The position numbers and the translations under genes were made by a program. A stretch of DNA of 64,000 nucleotides, taken from assembly GCF_029953285.1 (NCBI RefSeq), contig NZ_JASAOI010000057.1, positions 1-64,000 on the forward strand, read 5' to 3'. Below the pieces are notes generated by a model that ran no database searches, had not been told where the DNA came from, and saw only the letters and a program-made list of their open reading frames with translations. This DNA is from Yinghuangia seranimata. GTDB taxonomy: Bacteria; Actinomycetota; Actinomycetes; Streptomycetales; Streptomycetaceae. Positions 20,129 to 27,596 of this stretch are shown one piece after another (position 1 is the first letter of the stretch; the number at the start of each line of letters is the position of its first letter).

Positions 20129-22015
20129 TCAGCGAGGCGGTTCGGGACCGCCACGACGATCCTGCCTCAGCCCGCCTCCTCCATGATCACCCGGGCCCGG
20201 CCGTCGGCGAGCCTGAACCGCCCTGAGCACCCGCAGCTCCGGTGACACCCTGCGGGTCACGCCGACCCGGTCGAGGTGTTCCATCAGGGGCACGGCCACC
20301 CGACGTGTCGTGCCCAGCGCCTCGCGGGCCTGGCTCAGGGTGAAGGGTTCGGCCAGGAGGGAGAGTTCCGCGGCCGCGAGCTCCGCGGCGGACGGCAGCA
20401 GGTAGACGTCGCCGCCCACTCTGAGCAACCGCCCCGCCGCCACGGCGACGGAGAGCTCACGCGTTGTCAGCCCGGCCGCGTCCAGCTCCGCAGCCGACGG
20501 TGCCGTGAACGGCGTTGCCCGCAGGGCGGCTTCGACCTGCCGCAGGGCGCGCTCCGCTCGCTCGGGCAGCGTGGCCGCCACGCCGGGACGGTGGACCCCC
20601 CACCCGTCCGAGACCAGACGCGTCTCGGCCACCAAGGCGTCGAGCAGCTTCACGTCGGGCAGCCCGAGGTCGCGTGCCGCCGCCTCGCCGGGCAGCCCCG
20701 GGGCGAGCGGATGGGCGGCGGCGCGGGTGTCCACGGCAGCGAGCAGGGCCTCGCGCCACGCATCCCATCGCGCCGGGTCGACGAGCCATCCGGCCGCTGA
20801 CACCACCGTCGCAGGATCGGCATCGTCCGCACTCAAAATGTCCAGGGCCAGGAGGAGTTCGCGACGTACCGCGCCCCGCCGCACGACCTCACCCGCTGGA
20901 TCGGGCCGCCGCGCCACCCCCTCCAACACGAGAGCCCGCGCGGCCCGTGCCCTGCGGCCGCTCAGTCTCGGCGGGGCGGCGTCGATGACGTCTGCCCCCG
21001 CGACGACGCTTCGCCGTCCCGGGTCGTGCAACGCCACGCGTTCCCCGTGGGCGACCGGCAGCGGGGTGGCCAGGGTCAGGCGTGCCGTGTCCGAGCCGCC
21101 GAGCGTCCGGGTGCGCACGGGCACCGCCGCCGATCCGATGTGCAGGGTCAACTGCTCGGGCAGCGCGCGCCTTCGCGCCTCGTCCGTCGGCCGAAGGTCG
21201 TGGAGTCGTACGTCGAGTTCGGCGGTGCTGTGCCATCCTCCCGGCGCGATCAGGGCATCCCCGCGCCGGACTTCGTCCCTGCCGACACCCCGCAGGTTGA
21301 CCGCGACCCGGGCCACCGCGTCGGCGCGGTCCACGGTCGTCTTGAGCGACTCGAGGCCGCGGATCCCGACCGGTCGCCCGGAGGGCACAAGCACCAGCTC
21401 GTCCCCGGCCGCGAGCGTCCCGCCGCCCAGGGTTCCGGTGACCACAGTCCCGGCGCCGCGGACGGTGAACACCCGGTCCACCCACAGCCGGGCGGGCCGA
21501 ACGAGGTCCGGCGCGGGCAGCCGTCGCGCCAGCCGGTCCAGGGCGTCGCGCAGTTCCGGCAGTCCTTCCCCGGTCACGCCGCTGACCGCCACGTGCTCCG
21601 CGTCCGCGAGCGGCGTGCCGGCCAGATGCAACGCGGCTTCCTCCGAGGCCAGTTCGGCGTCCCCGAGGTCGGATCGGGTGATCGCCACGACGCCGTGCCG
21701 TACGTCCAATGCCCTTAGCGCCGCGACGTGTTCGCTCGTCTGCCGGCACCAGCCCTCGTCCGCCGCGACCACGAGCAGCACGGCCGGGACGGGCCCGAAC
21801 CCGGCCAGGGCGTTGCCGAAGAACCGCTGGTGTCCCGGGACGTCCACGAAGGCCGCGACTGCGCCCGACGGCAGCGTCGTCCACACGTACCCGAGGTCGA
21901 TGGTCATGCCGCGCCGCCGTTCCTCCGCCCAGCGGTCCGGCTCCATGCCGGTCAGGGCGCGCAGCAGCGTCGACTTGCCGTGGTCCACGTGCCCGGCGGT
22001 CGCGATGACGTGCAT
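20129..22015 (-). CDS. selB: Selenocysteine-specific elongation factor SelB, C-terminus frameshifted
   Basis: A 628-residue GTPase delivering Sec-tRNA to UGA codons. G1 GHVDHGKSTL, switch RRRGMTIDLGYVWT, G3 DVPGHQRFF, and a G4 variant (ITRSD in place of NKxD, as in many SelB). EF-Tu-like domains II-III follow, then C-terminal winged helices (PLAPGLPGEAAARDLGLPDVKLLDALVAE onwards). The last winged helix ends abnormally. Removing one G of the GGG opposite 20221-20223 gives RFRLADGRARVIMEEAG and a stop at 20167-20169, with GC in every third position; the actual frame has roughly half. This is either a sequencing error or a real mutation altering the SECIS-binding tail. The start ATG lies one base after the selA stop. 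Confidence 0.9.
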   Translation of the reverse strand: MHVIATAGHVDHGKSTLLRALTGMEPDRWAEERRRGMTIDLGYVWTTLPSGAVAAFVDVPGHQRFFGNALAGFGPVPAVLLVVAADEGWCRQTSEHVAALRALDVRHGVVAITRSDLGDAELASEEAALHLAGTPLADAEHVAVSGVTGEGLPELRDALDRLARRLPAPDLVRPARLWVDRVFTVRGAGTVVTGTLGGGTLAAGDELVLVPSGRPVGIRGLESLKTTVDRADAVARVAVNLRGVGRDEVRRGDALIAPGGWHSTAELDVRLHDLRPTDEARRRALPEQLTLHIGSAAVPVRTRTLGGSDTARLTLATPLPVAHGERVALHDPGRRSVVAGADVIDAAPPRLSGRRARAARALVLEGVARRPDPAGEVVRRGAVRRELLLALDILSADDADPATVVSAAGWLVDPARWDAWREALLAAVDTRAAAHPLAPGLPGEAAARDLGLPDVKLLDALVAETRLVSDGWGVHRPGVAATLPERAERALRQVEAALRATPFTAPSAAELDAAGLTTRELSVAVAAGRLLRVGGDVYLLPSAAELAAAELSLLAEPFTLSQAREALGTTRRVAVPLMEHLDRVGVTRRVSPELRVLRAVQARRRPGPGDHGGGGLRQDRRGGPEPPR

Positions 22016-22016
22016 G

Positions 22017-23366
22017 TCAGGCCGCGCCCAGTGCCCGCGCCACCACGTGCACGGCGTCATACAGCAGGTCGTCGTCGTGCGGCGGCACACACCGCAGGTC
22101 CAGGACGCACCGGCCGCGTTCGACCCGGCCCACCACGCACGGCCGTCCGGTGCGCAGCGGTTCGGCGTACGCCTCGGGCACCCGTACCGCCCAGCCGGGC
22201 AGCACCACGCCGGGCGCGCCTCCCCCGCCGACCGCACCGTCGCTTGAAGCGGCCTCCGCGTCGATCCCGTCCACCGCCAGCCGCGCCGCAAGCGCCCGGG
22301 CGCGTGCCTCCAGCAGCCCGGCGTCGGCGTGCAGTGCGGCGTGTGTGGGGGTGGCGGGCACCGCCAACGTGGCCTCCAGCGCGGCCAGGGTGAGCTTGTC
22401 GACGCGCAGTGCGCGCGCGAGCGGGTGGCGCCGCAAGCCTTCCACCAACTCCCGCTCCCCCAGCAGGAGTCCGGCCTGGGGCCCGCCGAGGAGTTTGTCG
22501 CCGCTGGCGGTGACGAGGTCGGCGCCGGCGGTGAGCCAGGTGGCGGCGTCGGGCTCGTCGGCCAGGAGCGGGTCGGGGGCGAGCAGTCCGGACCCGATGT
22601 CGGCGACGACGAGGGCGTCCAACGCGGCGAGTTCGCGCACCGGGACGTCGCGCGTGAAGCCCTCGATGCGGAAGTTCGACGGGTGGATCTTGAGGATGAA
22701 CCCGGTGTCGGGGCCGATCGCGTCCGCGTAGTCGCGCAGGTGGGTGCGGTTGGTGGTGCCGACCTCGCGCAGCCGCGCGCCGGTGCTCGCAAGGAGGTCA
22801 GGGATGCGGAACCCGTCGCCGATCTCGACGAGTTCGCCCCGGCTGACGATGATCTCGCGGCCCGAGGCAAGCGCGGTGGCGGCCAGCACGAGCGCGGCCG
22901 CGCCGTTGTTGACGACGTGCACGGCCCCGGCGGCGGGCACCTTGCGGGCGAGCAGGTCGAGCGCGCCGCGGCCGCGCCGGGCGCGGCCGCCGGTCGCGGT
23001 GTCGAACTCCACGTCCACATACCCGGCGGCCAGCGCCACCGCGTCGACGGCCTGGCGCGCCAGCGGGGCGCGACCGAGGTTGGTGTGCAGGACGACACCG
23101 GTCGCGTTGACCACCGGGGTGAGGCCGACGGGCGGGTCCGACACACCCTCGTGCCCCGTGCCCAGCAGGGCCCGGACGGTGTCCGGGACGGCCTCCGGTG
23201 CGATGTGCCCGTCCCGGGCGCGCTGCTGCGCCTCGCGGACGGCGGCCTTGACGACGTCGCGGCCGAGCCGCGCCTCAGCGGCGTGCAGTTGCGGGTGCGA
23301 GAGAAGGATGTCGGTGCGCGGGATGGCACGCCGCGGGTCGGCGGCGGCGCGTTCGTCCGCGGTCAC
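22017..23366 (-). CDS. selA: L-seryl-tRNA(Sec) selenium transferase
   Basis: A 449-residue PLP enzyme converting Ser-tRNA(Sec) to Sec-tRNA(Sec) with selenophosphate. Blocks seen are PVVNATGVVLHTNLGRAPL near residue 80, VNNGAAALVLAATALA, EVGTTNRTHLRDY, and the PLP lysine in ASGDKLLGGPQAG near residue 285. The length is normal. GTG at 23366 overlaps the selD stop codon by four bases (GTGA), and the stop is one base before selB, so selD-selA-selB are translationally coupled in one leftward operon. Confidence 0.95.
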   Translation of the reverse strand: MTADERAAADPRRAIPRTDILLSHPQLHAAEARLGRDVVKAAVREAQQRARDGHIAPEAVPDTVRALLGTGHEGVSDPPVGLTPVVNATGVVLHTNLGRAPLARQAVDAVALAAGYVDVEFDTATGGRARRGRGALDLLARKVPAAGAVHVVNNGAAALVLAATALASGREIIVSRGELVEIGDGFRIPDLLASTGARLREVGTTNRTHLRDYADAIGPDTGFILKIHPSNFRIEGFTRDVPVRELAALDALVVADIGSGLLAPDPLLADEPDAATWLTAGADLVTASGDKLLGGPQAGLLLGERELVEGLRRHPLARALRVDKLTLAALEATLAVPATPTHAALHADAGLLEARARALAARLAVDGIDAEAASSDGAVGGGGAPGVVLPGWAVRVPEAYAEPLRTGRPCVVGRVERGRCVLDLRCVPPHDDDLLYDAVHVVARALGAA

Positions 23367-24430
23367 CGCACCACCAGCGTCCGCTCGCCCCGCGCGACGA
23401 GTTCGCCGATCACCGGCGCCCCCGGCACCTCGCCCGCGACCAGGAGCCCGCCCGACGTCTGTGCGTCGGCCAGCAGCAGACGGTCCTCCTCCCCCACGTG
23501 CGGCCCCCATGCGGTGTGCGGCTCCACCCAGGCCAGGTTGCGCCGCGTGCCGCCGCTCACGTGCCCGGCCCGCACCGCCTCGCGCGCGCCGTCGAGGTAC
23601 GGCACGGCCGCCGCGTCCACGACCGCGGTGACGCCGCTGGCGCGGGCCAGCTTGTAGAGGTGGCCGAGCAGCCCGAAGCCCGTGACGTCGGTCGCGCACT
23701 CGGCCCCTGCGGCCAGTGCCGCGCGCGAGGCGTCGGCGTTGAGCGCCGTCATGGCCTCGACGGCGGCGGGGAACGCCTCGCCGGTGGCTTTGTGACGGGT
23801 GTTCAGCACCCCGATGCCCAGCGGCTTCGTCAGCGACAGCGGCACTCCCGCCCGGCCGCGGTCGTTGCGCAGCAGGCGTTCCGGGTCGGCGATGCCGGTG
23901 ACCGCGAGCCCGTACTTGGGTTCGGCGTCGTCGACGCTGTGCCCTCCGGCCAGGTGGCAGCCCGCCGCCGAGGTGACGTCGAGGCCGCCGCGCAGCACCT
24001 CGCGGGCCAGTTCGAGCGGCAGCAGGTCGCGCGGCCAGGCCAGCAGGTTGACGGCGACGAGCGGCGTGCCGCCCATCGCGTACACGTCCGAGAGGGCGTT
24101 GGCGGCGGCGATGCGGCCCCAGTCGTAGGGGTCGTCGACGACCGGGGTGAAGAAGTCCGTGGTGAGCACGACGGCCCGTCCGCCCTCGATCCGGACCACC
24201 GCCGCGTCGTCGCCGTGCTCCAGCCCGACGACGAGTCCGTTCGATGCCAGGGGAGTTCCGGAAGCGCCGGGCAACGACGCGACGACCGCCTCGAGTTCGC
24301 CCGGAGGGATCTTGCAGGCGCAGCCGCCGCCGCGCGCGTACTGCGTCAGCCGGGAGGTCGGCGCCGAGGCCGGTCGGCGTGCCTCGTCGGCCTGTTCGGC
24401 GGCGGTCTGCGGGTCTCCCACATGCGTCAT
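23363..24430 (-). CDS. selD: Selenophosphate synthase
   Basis: A 355-residue enzyme making selenophosphate from selenide and ATP. The glycine-rich catalytic loop is GGGCACKIPPGEL, with two Cys (not selenocysteine) and the catalytic Lys. Downstream blocks are LTTDFFTPVVDDPYDWGRIAAANALSD, LAGGHSVDDAEPKYGLAVTG and ADAQTSGGLL, all characteristic. ATG at 24430 gives an N-terminus with a roughly 30-residue extension before the catalytic loop; the ribosome-binding site is modest. It is first in the selDAB operon and divergent from tRNA-Sec, 59 bases away. Confidence 0.95.
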   Translation of the reverse strand: MTHVGDPQTAAEQADEARRPASAPTSRLTQYARGGGCACKIPPGELEAVVASLPGASGTPLASNGLVVGLEHGDDAAVVRIEGGRAVVLTTDFFTPVVDDPYDWGRIAAANALSDVYAMGGTPLVAVNLLAWPRDLLPLELAREVLRGGLDVTSAAGCHLAGGHSVDDAEPKYGLAVTGIADPERLLRNDRGRAGVPLSLTKPLGIGVLNTRHKATGEAFPAAVEAMTALNADASRAALAAGAECATDVTGFGLLGHLYKLARASGVTAVVDAAAVPYLDGAREAVRAGHVSGGTRRNLAWVEPHTAWGPHVGEEDRLLLADAQTSGGLLVAGEVPGAPVIGELVARGERTLVVR

Positions 24431-24489: not shown

Positions 24490-24583
24490 GGTGGCGTGTG
24501 GGTTCCTGGTGGGCCCCTCCGCCTTCAAAGCGGCTGGGGCGGGGCGTGCCTCGCCCGGCGGGTTCGATTCCCGTCCGCCACCG
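24490..24583 (+). tRNA. selC: tRNA-Sec (anticodon UCA)
   Basis: Acceptor strand GGTGGCGT (24490-24497) pairs with CCGCCACC (24575-24582), with a mismatch at the innermost of eight positions. The D arm has a long six-pair stem (GGGTTC/GGGCCC). The anticodon loop is CTTCAAA (24523-24529) with anticodon TCA at 24525-24527. The long variable arm is GGGCGGGG/CCTCGCCC with loop CGTG. The T arm is GCGGG, loop TTCGATT, CCCGT. The discriminator G is at 24583 and CCA is not encoded. TAGGGT at 24477-24482 is a possible -10. It is on the opposite strand to selDAB. Confidence 0.93.
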
Positions 24584-24640: not shown

Positions 24641-24925
24641 TCAGCCGCCGAGCAGCGGCCCGTAGCCCCGGTTGCGGCCGCGGATGTGGACGACGTGGCC
24701 CGCGTCCTTGGTCACCTGCACGGCCTCGGTGGTGCGCCGCATCGCGCCGACGGCGACGGTGCGCACGTCGTCGGCGACGGCGACGCGGTCGCGGTTGAAG
24801 TGCACGGCGAAGATGTCCTCGGGCGCGTCGTCGGTGCCCACCCCGACGGCCACGTAGACATCCGTGGTGCCGTCGGCGTTGGTCTTCAGGTACGCGTAGC
24901 CGCGGTCGGTGGGGCTGGCCCTCAT
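24641..24925 (-). CDS. Small hypothetical protein, last gene of the MauE/MauD-like operon
   Basis: A 94-residue soluble protein: GYAYLKTNADGTTDVYVAVGVGTD, then FAVHFNRDRVAVADDVRTVAVGAM, then GHVVHIRGRNRGYGPLLGG. It is predicted beta-rich, without Cys, signal or membrane segment. Its ATG overlaps the stop codon of the upstream gene (ATGA), so it is translationally coupled to the operon. No known family is recognised. The conserved placement suggests a cytoplasmic accessory to the exported peptide system. Confidence 0.7.
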   Translation of the reverse strand: MRASPTDRGYAYLKTNADGTTDVYVAVGVGTDDAPEDIFAVHFNRDRVAVADDVRTVAVGAMRRTTEAVQVTKDAGHVVHIRGRNRGYGPLLGG

Positions 24926-25353
24926 GTCGGGCTCCTCTCGTCTTCCAGGTGGCGGGCGGGCGTGCTGGGGCGCAGGGGTTCGGCGCGTTCGGGGACGGGG
25001 CCGCCGAACAGGACGGCCCGCCAGTCCCCGCTGAACGCGTAGAGCCCGCTGCTGGTGGTGATGCCGTAGCGGCCGGGGACGCGCGCGGCCAGGATGTGGC
25101 GTTGCGAACTCCCCATGCCGTACAGGCTGTCGAGATCGGACCAGAGCGTGACGCTGAGCACGGTCCGGCGGCGCCAGTCGACGATGTGGGCGGCGCCCAG
25201 GAAACCGTCGGCGACCCGCCGGACCTCCTTCTCGATCGAGCGGTGCATGTGCAGGATCCGCAGCAGGTTGCGCAGCGTGTGGCACTCGAACCGCGTGACG
25301 GCGACGTGCCCGCGCGGATCGCTGGCCCGGTAGTGGGACGTGGTTCCGGTCAT
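24922..25353 (-). CDS. Hypothetical protein resembling antibiotic-biosynthesis-monooxygenase folds
   Basis: A 143-residue soluble protein. HVAVTRFECHTLRNLLRILHMHRSIEKEVRRVADGFLGAAHIVDW, followed by RRTVLSVTLWSDLDSLYGMGSSQRHILAARVPGRYGITTSSGLYAFSGDW, has the spacing of a ferredoxin-like ABM/DUF3291 domain: strand, helix, VLSVTLW strand, helix, strand. One Cys and several His are present, but no metal motif is clear. The start lies one base after the stop of the membrane protein upstream, and the stop overlaps the next gene. The family assignment is weak and rests on the pattern only. Confidence 0.65.
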   Translation of the reverse strand: MTGTTSHYRASDPRGHVAVTRFECHTLRNLLRILHMHRSIEKEVRRVADGFLGAAHIVDWRRRTVLSVTLWSDLDSLYGMGSSQRHILAARVPGRYGITTSSGLYAFSGDWRAVLFGGPVPERAEPLRPSTPARHLEDERSPT

Positions 25354-25354
25354 G

Positions 25355-25936
25355 TCACACCCACCCGGCCCCCGCGGTCGCGGCGGCGGCGAGCACGACG
25401 AGCCCGGCTCCGGAGAGCAGCCGGACACGGCCGTGCCAGCGACGTCCCCGGTCGCCGCGCCACGACGGCCGGGTGAGCATGAACCAGATGCTGCGGACGC
25501 TGATCACCGCCATCCCCACGGTGGTCATGCCCGGCAGCACCAGCCACGCCGACGACGGTGCCAGCAGCACCACGCCGACGAGTGCGCCCCACGTCAGGGA
25601 GGTGCTCTTCTGGGTGGTGAACAGCAGCCCCAGGTCGAATCCCCAGACCAGCCCGAGCCGCCCGGGGGCGAGCTTGCGGACGTACGCCTGGGGCACCTGC
25701 CGCCACACGTGCCAGGTCCGGTCGCGGGCGTCGGCGATGCCGAGCACCAGCAGGACCAGGCCCGCGGCGATCTGCCGGCCGAGGGTCGGGACGGCCCAGG
25801 CGATGAGCTCGCCCAGTCCGTACGCGATCGAGGCCAGCAGCGCGGCGGCGCCCAGCCCGCCGACCAGGAGGCCGAGCAGGAAGCGCGTGCCCTGGAGCTT
25901 GCTGCGTTGGAGCATCGGGCCGGCGACCCCGGCCAT
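25355..25936 (-). CDS. Integral membrane protein of the MauE/MauD-like operon
   Basis: A 193-residue protein with about five or six membrane helices: FLLGLLVGGLGAAALLASIAYG, QIAAGLVLLVLGIAD, WGALVGVVLLAPSSAWLVL, TTVGMAVISVRSIWFML and AGLVVLAAAATAGAG. A polar loop, RLGLVWGFDLGLLFTTQKSTS, sits between the second and third. It lacks Cys pairs, so it is not an obvious thiol carrier such as CcdA. Its place after the exported Cys-rich peptide, in a fully coupled operon, suggests a role in handling or membrane association of that peptide. The start ATG at 25936 has GAGG upstream. Confidence 0.75.
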   Translation of the reverse strand: MAGVAGPMLQRSKLQGTRFLLGLLVGGLGAAALLASIAYGLGELIAWAVPTLGRQIAAGLVLLVLGIADARDRTWHVWRQVPQAYVRKLAPGRLGLVWGFDLGLLFTTQKSTSLTWGALVGVVLLAPSSAWLVLPGMTTVGMAVISVRSIWFMLTRPSWRGDRGRRWHGRVRLLSGAGLVVLAAAATAGAGWV

Positions 25937-25945
25937 GGACTGGCC

Positions 25946-26005
25946 TCAAGGGCTGTAGACCTGCAGCGTGGCCGCGACGCCCGCGACCACCAGCCATGTC
26001 ACCAT
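25946..26005 (-). CDS. Possible 19-residue hydrophobic peptide
   Basis: Between the Cys-rich peptide gene and the membrane protein gene lies an ATG-initiated frame of 19 codons (MVTWLVVAGVAATLQVYSP) ending TGA. AGGAG stands about 11 bases upstream, and the next start codon lies nine bases after its stop. The product would be a single short membrane helix. GC3 is high. So short a frame can arise by chance, so this is only a candidate. Confidence 0.3.
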   Translation of the reverse strand: MVTWLVVAGVAATLQVYSP

Positions 26006-26053
26006 GCGGCCTGGCTCCTGCCTTCCTCGATGCGGGGGGTGGGTGTGCGCCGG

Positions 26054-26386
26054 TCAGTTGTAGCGGCAGTCGGCGGCCGAGTAGCGGTCGTTGTCCGCCT
26101 CGCAGCAGGAGCAGTGCAGGGAGCCGTTGACGCTGCAGTACCAGATGTAGGTCTTGTGGTTGTAGCACCACGTATAGGTGGTGTTGGCCGGGTAGTTGGC
26201 GAGGCTGCAGCACAGTGGCGCGGCGGACGCCTCTTGCGTCGCGGCGAAGACGCCGGCCGAGGTCATGAGGCCGAGTGCGCCGATGCGGCCGAGGATCCGG
26301 CGGCGGCCGACCTTCTCCGGCGCTGCCGCGTCCGGTTCGGCGGCCTCGTCCCGGCCGGCTTTGGCGGAGTTGCGGAACTTGATCAT
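26054..26386 (-). CDS. Tat-exported Cys-rich peptide resembling a truncated MauA (methylamine dehydrogenase light chain)
   Basis: A 110-residue precursor. Residues 1-56 hold a twin-arginine signal (GRRRILGRIGALGLMTSAGVFAA) with a polar N-region. The roughly 54-residue mature part has eight Cys (LCC, TWC, WYC, LHCSCC, DC), two Trp and many Tyr. Its TTYTWCYN...YCSVNGSLHCSCC pattern recalls the MauA segment around the TTQ tryptophan (SWxxSCYN...CCGYNVSGxCPC). The distal MauA half carrying the second TTQ tryptophan is absent, so a classical TTQ cofactor is doubtful. No MauB heavy chain is present. The ATG overlaps the stop of the MauD-like gene (ATGA). Most likely a disulfide-rich exported peptide of unknown role. 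Confidence 0.75.
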   Translation of the reverse strand: MIKFRNSAKAGRDEAAEPDAAAPEKVGRRRILGRIGALGLMTSAGVFAATQEASAAPLCCSLANYPANTTYTWCYNHKTYIWYCSVNGSLHCSCCEADNDRYSAADCRYN

Positions 26387-27024
26387 TGCGCTCCTTCCGG
26401 TGCGTGCGGGGTGTGCACGGGCTGCGGTGCCCGGTGCGGTGCGGTGGCGCCGATCCGGGGGCGACGGGTGCGTTCCTCGAGGTGGTCGAGGATGTTGGTG
26501 AGCCTGCCGAAGGAGTAGGCCTCGGCGACGGTGCCGGTCTCCAGGACCAGCGCGGTGGGGCTGAGGTTCACCCCGAAGGTCCCGGTGGACCATTCGCCGC
26601 CCTCGTCGACGAGGCACGGCACGCCGGCCTGGGCGAGCGGGTGGCGGTTCAGGAACTCCTGGCCGGACGCGGCGTCGCGGCAGGAGACGACGACGGCGAG
26701 CGGCGCGTCGTCCGCGGCGTGGCCGTGTCCGGCGTGCTTGCGGCGGTGCTCGACGAGCTGCCCGGCGACCTTGTCGCAGGTCGCGCAGATCGGGCTGAGG
26801 ACGAGGATCGCGGCGTCGCGGCGGCCGGCGAGCGGCGCGAGCGGCTCCGGCCACGTGTCGGGCGTGACGCCGAGCGGGACGTCCTCGAGCGGCGTCAGGT
26901 GCCCGGGGTCCTCGGCGGGCGCCGCGTCGCGCGGCAGGCGGGACGCGAGCTCGCCCATCATGGCGTACAGCAGCACGACCGCCGCCGCCAGCACGAGCAG
27001 GGCGATGGAGCCGACGACGATCAC
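26383..27024 (-). CDS. MauD-like membrane-anchored thioredoxin-fold protein
   Basis: A 213-residue protein with one N-terminal membrane helix (residues 1-24), an acidic/proline linker, and a thioredoxin-like domain outside. The active-site motif is LSPICATCDKV, a CxxC typical of MauD/TlpA-like oxidoreductases. SCRDAASGQEFLNRH and FGVNLSPTALVLE supply the cis-Pro loop region. In methylamine-dehydrogenase operons MauD is needed to form the six disulfides of MauA, and here it directly precedes the eight-Cys peptide. The GTG start overlaps the MauE-like stop (GTGA), and its stop overlaps the peptide start. The basic proline-rich tail is unusual. Confidence 0.85.
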   Translation of the reverse strand: MIVVGSIALLVLAAAVVLLYAMMGELASRLPRDAAPAEDPGHLTPLEDVPLGVTPDTWPEPLAPLAGRRDAAILVLSPICATCDKVAGQLVEHRRKHAGHGHAADDAPLAVVVSCRDAASGQEFLNRHPLAQAGVPCLVDEGGEWSTGTFGVNLSPTALVLETGTVAEAYSFGRLTNILDHLEERTRRPRIGATAPHRAPQPVHTPHAPEGAQ

Positions 27025-27596
27025 CCGGATACCTCCGACCGTTGGGCGGACTGGCGGACGCGCTGGCGGAGCAGTTCGCCGACGACGACGCGGGCCTCGG
27101 CGCGGACGGCGACGAACTGCCAGACCATGAGTACGACGACGCCGGACAGTGCGGTGGCCGCGGCCTCGTCGGACGACATGCCGCCACGGAAAGCGAGGTT
27201 CGCGCCGGCCACGGCGGCGAGGGCGAGCCCCATGAGAACGTTGCCGGCCCCGAGCGGACGGCTGCTCGCGGCGCCGAAGCAGCCGCAGGGCTCACTGCTG
27301 CCGCGCAGCGCGCCGAGGACACCGGCGGCCGCGAAGACCAGGCCGAGGATGATCACCAACGCCCGGTCCGCGACGCGCAGTTGCGGAACGGCGGCGGCGA
27401 TGCCGGCGGCGAGTTCGGCCACGGCCAGCGCCCGCACGGCAGCGGTGGGCGGCGGCATCCCGCGCCCACGCGGCACGAGTTCGGCCACGGCGGCCGCACC
27501 GGCGGCCGGGGAGACGAGTTTGACGGCGCCCGCCTGGACGAGCACCGCGATCACGAGTGCGTCAATGAGCGTTAAGAGCCAGTCCGCGGAATCCAT
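27021..27596 (-). CDS. MauE-like membrane protein (DoxX/VKOR-related redox partner)
   Basis: A 191-residue protein with about four to five membrane helices. It has the MauE hallmark PCGCFGAASSRPLG, a CxC-F motif next to a membrane helix, plus an N-terminal DALVIAVLVQAGAVKLVSP helix of DoxX type. MauE proteins work with MauD to oxidise or shuttle thiols for the exported substrate. It is first in a leftward operon in which each of the first three genes overlaps the next by four bases. ATG at 27596 has GGGGTGG upstream. Confidence 0.85.
   Translation of the reverse strand: MDSADWLLTLIDALVIAVLVQAGAVKLVSPAAGAAAVAELVPRGRGMPPPTAAVRALAVAELAAGIAAAVPQLRVADRALVIILGLVFAAAGVLGALRGSSEPCGCFGAASSRPLGAGNVLMGLALAAVAGANLAFRGGMSSDEAAATALSGVVVLMVWQFVAVRAEARVVVGELLRQRVRQSAQRSEVSG

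What the first reader, a model, noticed from the sequence alone, without database searches (positions are those of the whole stretch)
24641..27596. Coupled operon: MauE-like, MauD-like and a Tat-exported eight-Cys peptide without MauB
The first three genes overlap by GTGA and ATGA. Downstream are a membrane protein, a possible 19-residue membrane peptide, an ABM-like protein and a small beta protein, the last three also nearly or fully overlapping. MauE and MauD normally mature the disulfides of methylamine dehydrogenase light chain. Here their apparent substrate is only about 54 mature residues with eight Cys and two Trp, and no heavy chain or electron acceptor is present. This suggests a dedicated secretion-and-oxidation system for a disulfide-rich peptide of unknown function.
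Basis: partly seen in the sequence, partly recalled or inferred. Interest (0 to 1): 0.85.

Follow-up and report, generated by a model that had tools for sequence, protein, structure and literature searches.

The report
Selenium-containing MauF in disulfide-peptide operon
The operon is real and conserved, but two of its predicted genes (a 19-residue peptide and a membrane protein) are one gene read through a UGA codon as selenocysteine, giving an apparently undescribed membrane selenoprotein related to MauF that probably helps build a secreted, disulfide-rich peptide.

Summary
The MauE-MauD-Tat/Cys-peptide operon is confirmed and conserved in 19 actinobacterial loci; MauB was not found in 18 genomes carrying it. 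The "19-residue membrane peptide" and the following membrane protein are one gene joined through an in-frame UGA (25946-25948), read as selenocysteine. Evidence: the UGA and flanking SP-U-GxSMAGVAGPM motif are invariant in all 19 loci, with no Cys version. A SECIS-like hairpin follows at fixed distance, invariant even at silent positions and base-compensated in a divergent relative. tRNA-Sec lies beside the operon here and in four other loci. Bridging sequences show the protein is MauF-like (DsbD/CcdA superfamily), with Sec replacing MauF's invariant Cys. A wider search found 15 genomes with UGA at this site (13 have tRNA-Sec; background 101/395) and two Cys versions in genomes without it. Most wider loci also encode a Tat-exported Cys-rich protein, of at least three unrelated families. 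Best reading: a Sec-MauF/MauE/MauD module that makes and corrects disulfides in exported Cys-rich proteins. Sec identity is strongly supported; redox direction and peptide function are inferred. The family matched nothing in NCBIfam or Pfam and is absent from the 2026 list of 119 selenoprotein families.

The parts
27021..27596 (-). MauE-like membrane protein (CGCFG motif)
   Evidence: Pfam MauE 51.8 bits; homologue in 18 loci
26383..27024 (-). MauD-like membrane-anchored thioredoxin-like protein (CATC motif)
   Evidence: weak BLASTP to P. denitrificans MauD, 6e-4; homologues in all loci; Streptomyces homologue weakly Thioredoxin_2
26054..26386 (-). Tat-exported eight-Cys peptide
   Evidence: RRR leader; conserved CCxL-C-YxWxC-CxCCE-C pattern in 20 homologues
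25355..26005 (-). MauF-like membrane selenoprotein, 216 aa, Sec at residue 20
   Evidence: in-frame TGA conserved in 19 of 19 loci; MauF homology
25946..25948 (-). UGA codon read as selenocysteine
25918..25934 (-). SECIS-like hairpin GGCCGG-GGUCG-CCGGCC, 11 nt after the UGA
   Evidence: invariant codons incl. third positions; compensated stem in L045
24922..25353 (-). ABM-like protein
   Evidence: Monooxy_af470-like below cut-off, E 0.0026; homologues in 18 of the loci
24641..24925 (-). small beta protein of unknown function
   Evidence: homologues in most loci; no family match
24490..24582 (+). tRNA-Sec (anticodon TCA)
   Evidence: ARAGORN; Rfam RF01852 65.3 bits, gathering 47
23363..24430 (-). 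selD (Cys-type, GGGCACKI), start inferred
   Evidence: ORF sequence; same order as annotated selD-selA-selB in S. anthocyanicus
22017..23366 (-). selA, start inferred
   Evidence: ORF sequence and same gene order
20129..22012 (-). selB, start inferred
   Evidence: TIGR00475 287 bits, cut-off 242

Best explanation
The operon encodes a selenium-dependent maturation module for a Tat-exported, disulfide-rich peptide. Its membrane component is a MauF-like member of the DsbD/CcdA superfamily whose redox residue is selenocysteine, inserted at a UGA by SelB, tRNA-Sec and a SECIS hairpin just downstream; in the window genome the tRNA-Sec, selD, selA and selB genes sit directly beside the operon. Shown by sequence: the readthrough frame, the conserved hairpin, the linkage to Sec genes, Cys at the same site in true MauF proteins and in two actinobacterial homologues, and the conserved operon. 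Inferred: Sec20 is the only conserved redox residue in the membrane protein (the window protein has no Cys at all), so it would act by forming a selenenylsulfide with a partner such as the MauD CxxC or the MauE CGC motif, passing redox equivalents across the membrane so that MauD can make and correct up to four disulfides in the exported eight-Cys peptide.
For: TGA in all 19 loci inside an invariant motif; upstream and downstream codons both vary synonymously while the residues are kept, except the hairpin codons GCC GGG GTC GCC, which are identical in 18 of 18 (entropy 0.19 vs 1.28 bits, permutation p=8e-5); hairpin fully paired with 3 of 6 pairs doubly changed in L045; tRNA-Sec beside the operon here and in L005, L006, L008, L009; selB over cut-off in 17 of 18 genomes; no TGA-containing FDH found in G000, G584, G586, G587; MauF Cys invariant at the site; Cys versions only in two genomes without tRNA-Sec, UGA versions 13 of 15 with it, background 101 of 395, Fisher p=7e-7; operon conserved; L046 relative matches DsbD_2 above cut-off.
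Against: No direct detection of selenium or of the protein. The window hairpin alone is not more stable than shuffles. The compensatory changes all come from one sequence, L045. The homology between the window protein and MauF rests on a bridge sequence and profile comparison (probability 86%). Redox direction and the peptide's function are not shown. MAGs G597, G718 and G619 carry the UGA but selB (G597) or tRNA-Sec (G718, G619) was not found, which may be incompleteness.
Confidence: 0.72

Rival explanations
1. Two separate genes: a 19-residue membrane peptide ending at the UGA, and a membrane protein re-initiating at the ATG four codons later.
For: The plasmid annotation starts the membrane protein at that ATG; an ATG lies at the fourth codon after the UGA in all 19 core loci.
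Against: Residues on both sides of the UGA are conserved as one block; MauF proteins have Cys there in one continuous chain; two homologues have TGC there; the stop is always TGA, never TAA or TAG; association with tRNA-Sec.
Confidence: 0.04
2. It is a true selenoprotein with MauE and MauD, but the module does not act on the peptide's disulfides: for example it protects against oxidants or handles selenium or metal, and the peptide is a regulator or metal binder.
For: Peptide function unknown; no structural match; ABM-like and beta proteins are not explained by disulfide formation; eight Cys could bind metal.
Against: MauE and MauD homology and the recurrence of Cys-rich Tat proteins of different families beside MauE/MauD/Sec-MauF in many loci.
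Confidence: 0.2
3. The peptide is a reduced amine dehydrogenase light chain with a Trp-derived cofactor.
For: MauF, MauE and MauD homologues beside a Tat-exported Cys-rich protein.
Against: No MauB or MauA hit in 18 genomes; MauB model rings on Paracoccus; one conserved Trp only; no similarity to MauA beyond the Tat leader.
Confidence: 0.04

Closest known systems
mau maturation proteins MauF, MauE, MauD of Paracoccus denitrificans
   Same: MauE family above cut-off, MauD-like partner, MauF-like membrane protein with the SP-[C/U]-G motif, Tat-exported Cys-rich neighbour
   Different: Sec instead of Cys in MauF; no MauB or MauA found; small eight-Cys peptide; linked to sel genes
DsbD/CcdA transmembrane thiol-disulfide carriers
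   Same: Relative L046 matches DsbD_2 above its cut-off; lone redox residue in an SPC-type motif
   Different: Window protein itself matches no Pfam model; one conserved redox residue rather than a Cys pair (CcdA pair is from memory)
Known membrane selenoproteins (YeeE/YedE type, TsoB rhodanese/DsbD fusion, MerT-like)
   Same: Membrane proteins with Sec
   Different: Different motifs as listed in PMC13188914; no NCBIfam match for the window family
Sec-containing formate dehydrogenase, the usual actinobacterial selenoprotein
   Same: Uses the same SelB/tRNA-Sec machinery
   Different: Unrelated protein; not found with TGA in the genomes where the Sec genes adjoin this operon

Membership tests
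Bacterial selenoprotein | In-frame UGA conserved across homologues, with Cys in others | tested here: met
   19 of 19 core loci TGA; 15 genomes TGA and 2 Cys in wider search
Bacterial selenoprotein | SECIS hairpin just downstream of the UGA | tested here: met
   fixed-distance stem with GGUCG loop, silent-site invariance, compensation in L045; binding by SelB not tested
Bacterial selenoprotein | SelA, SelB, SelD and tRNA-Sec in the genome | tested here: met
   selA and selD by ORF sequence and gene order
Bacterial selenoprotein | Selenium present in the protein | not testable with these tools
   needs 75Se labelling or mass spectrometry
MauF family | Sequence homology over the membrane domain with the invariant SPCG site | tested here: met
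   bridge L046 3e-11 to MauF and 8e-12 to the family; A3 vs A6 probability 86%
Methylamine dehydrogenase (mau) system | MauB heavy chain | tested here: not met
   no PF06433 hit in 18 genomes; control rings at 702 bits
MauA light chain | Sequence homology and two Trp for TTQ | tested here: not met
   no similarity beyond the leader, one conserved Trp; PF02975 search had no positive control
DsbD/CcdA superfamily | Pfam DsbD_2 or DsbD_TM match | tested here: inconclusive
   met for relative L046 (26.2 bits, cut-off 24.9), not for the window protein; no PDB fold match

The most novel reading that the evidence does not exclude
MauF-type proteins are, across Actinomycetes, predominantly selenoproteins, and Sec-MauF with MauE and MauD forms a general, sometimes plasmid-borne, Sec-dependent maturation system for at least three unrelated families of Tat-exported Cys-rich proteins, a branch of oxidative protein folding not described before.
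Probability: 0.6. Interest if true: 0.92.

Novelty: new variant of a known kind. Interest (0 to 1): 0.86.

Why it matters
It adds an apparently undescribed family of membrane selenoproteins, gives a likely client for selenocysteine machinery in Streptomyces relatives in which no Sec-formate dehydrogenase was found, and points to the redox residue of MauF, whose mechanism in methylamine dehydrogenase biogenesis is, as far as I recall, unresolved. It also points to secreted Cys-rich proteins whose folding may depend on selenium. The S. anthocyanicus annotation cuts the gene at the UGA, so such genes are easily missed.

Tried and rejected
Direct peptide search in 200 same-family genomes gave only two weak hits; the one inspected showed no such operon. 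MauD as query found nothing in 396 phylum genomes. No relatives in viral contigs. The peptide gene's own TGA was tested as Sec and rejected: sequence after it is not conserved. PDB sequence and fold searches for the peptide and Sec-MauF gave no significant match. Homology of the peptide and of the type-2 Cys-rich proteins to MauA was tested and not found. A MauB-dependent role was tested and not supported. Paper searches for selenoprotein with MauF or MauE found nothing relevant; the 119-family list was read.

Full report
What is there. On the minus strand of the window six genes lie head to tail: MauE-like (27021-27596), MauD-like (26383-27024), a Tat-leader peptide with eight Cys (26054-26386), a membrane protein, an ABM-like protein (24922-25353) and a small protein (24641-24925). 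The GTGA and ATGA overlaps are as described. Pfam recognises MauE only. ARAGORN found a tRNA-Sec at 24490 and Rfam agrees at 65 bits. selD, selA and selB follow (selB by model; selD and selA by ORF sequence and gene order).

The key observation. A tblastn of the peptide against plasmids hit Streptomyces anthocyanicus. Its plasmid carries the same six genes in order, followed by selD, selA and selB, with a tRNA-Sec between. Reading the two side by side showed that the supposed 19-residue peptide continues, through a TGA, into the membrane protein: MVTWLVVAGVAATLQVYSP-TGA-GQSMAGVAGPML in the window and MVTWFVIAGVAAILQVFSP-TGA-GQSMAGVAGPML in S. anthocyanicus. By contrast, sequence after the peptide gene's own TGA is not conserved, so that one is a stop.

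Conservation. A genome scan gave 17 more loci in Streptomyces, Fodinicola, Flexivirga, Micromonospora, Actinomadura, Virgisporangium, Dactylosporangium and MAGs. All 19 have TGA at the same place in SP-U-GxSMAGVAGPM and none has Cys. MauE, MauD, peptide, ABM and small-protein homologues are neighbours in essentially all loci long enough to show them, with some changes of order. The peptide alignment keeps CCxL-C-YxWxC-CxCCE-C with one invariant Trp; a few homologues lack single Cys positions.

SECIS. After the UGA the codons GCC GGG GTC GCC are identical in 18 of 18 genes, while other conserved codons vary freely (0.19 against 1.28 bits, permutation p=8e-5). They form a six-pair stem with a GGUCG loop, 11 nt after the UGA. 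The divergent relative L045 has GATTGG-CGTGA-CCAATC at exactly that place: three pairs changed on both sides, all cells paired. All three double changes come from that one sequence. A fold of the window sequence alone is not unusual for its composition, so the evidence is comparative.

Machinery and clients. selB is over its cut-off in 17 of 18 genomes holding the gene. In G000, G584, G586 and G587, where tRNA-Sec is next to the operon, no formate dehydrogenase with an internal TGA was found, whereas ten of the other genomes have one. In those four genomes this protein is therefore the likely client of the Sec genes; a full survey of other selenoproteins was not made.

Relation to MauF. P. denitrificans MauF has LLSTWSPCGYSS and RAQVPHDARQRFPKWVIGGLYGLSLGLDYLTY, matching the Sec protein's LQVYSPUGQSM and WRQVPQAYVRKLAPGRLGLVWGFDLGLLFTT. 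Profile comparison with six MauF proteins gives E 4.8e-6, probability 86%. L046, an actinobacterial gene with STWSP-U-GESML next to MauE and MauD, links both: 3e-11 to Indioceanicola MauF and 8e-12 to the Sec family. It also exceeds the DsbD_2 cut-off. The Cys is invariant in the six MauF proteins. The window protein has no Cys besides the Sec site.

Wider family. A combined profile found 17 of 297 Actinomycetes genomes. At the site, 15 genomes have UGA (some twice) and two have TGC. A tRNA-Sec match of 64 bits or more, clearly separate from weaker matches, is in 101 of 395 genomes sampled, in 13 of the 15 UGA genomes (Fisher p=7e-7) and in neither Cys genome. The 101 is my own count from the listed matches, and the 297- and 395-genome samples are overlapping draws, so the p-value is approximate. 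There are three motif types: SP-U-GxSMAG, WSP-U-GESML and SGS[TV]-U-xxNSA. Tat-exported Cys-rich proteins lie beside most of them and fall in different families; one carries LGFP repeats. This suggests that MauE/MauD/Sec-MauF matures exported Cys-rich proteins more generally.

Mechanism. Shown by sequence: readthrough frame, hairpin, linkage, Cys/Sec exchange, operon. Inferred: Sec20, between the first two predicted helices (AF2 pLDDT 89.5), forms a selenenylsulfide with MauD or MauE and passes redox equivalents so that the peptide's disulfides are made or corrected outside the membrane. The direction is open: DsbD/CcdA proteins are known for supplying electrons (established knowledge, not tested here), which would favour a correcting role.

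Novelty. No NCBIfam or Pfam model matches the window protein (two further types checked), and no family with this motif is in the list of 119 prokaryotic selenoprotein families (PMC13188914). No relevant paper in the library links selenoproteins to MauF or MauE. The library holds open papers only.

Noticed in passing
L010:9504-9506 (Flexivirga meconopsidis): The ABM-like gene there has its own in-frame TGA (WDSLQ-TGA-IYDMG), with homology continuing after it; a second Sec site, a decayed gene or a sequencing error.
   Followed up: no
L005 (NZ_CP109276.1, 156-165 kb): The whole operon plus tRNA-Sec, selD, selA and selB sits on a 387-kb linear plasmid: an apparently self-contained, mobile selenoprotein cassette.
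   Followed up: partly
L053:3529-4926 (-): Tat-leader protein with about 25 Cys in its N-terminal part and C-terminal LGFP repeats, encoded just downstream of a Sec-MauF of the WSP-U-GESML type; no Pfam family for the Cys-rich part.
   Followed up: partly
L014 and L016, 10.8-12.3 kb: In two Micromonospora loci a second MauD-like gene and the peptide gene lie downstream of the ABM-like gene instead of upstream of Sec-MauF.
   Followed up: no
L067, L068, L069, L070, L071, L072, L074, L075: A third, divergent Sec-MauF type (SGS[TV]-U-[STR]xNSA), mostly beside Tat proteins with a NAWRW...CSD pattern; in G115 and G744 a tRNA-Sec lies within about 8 kb.
   Followed up: partly
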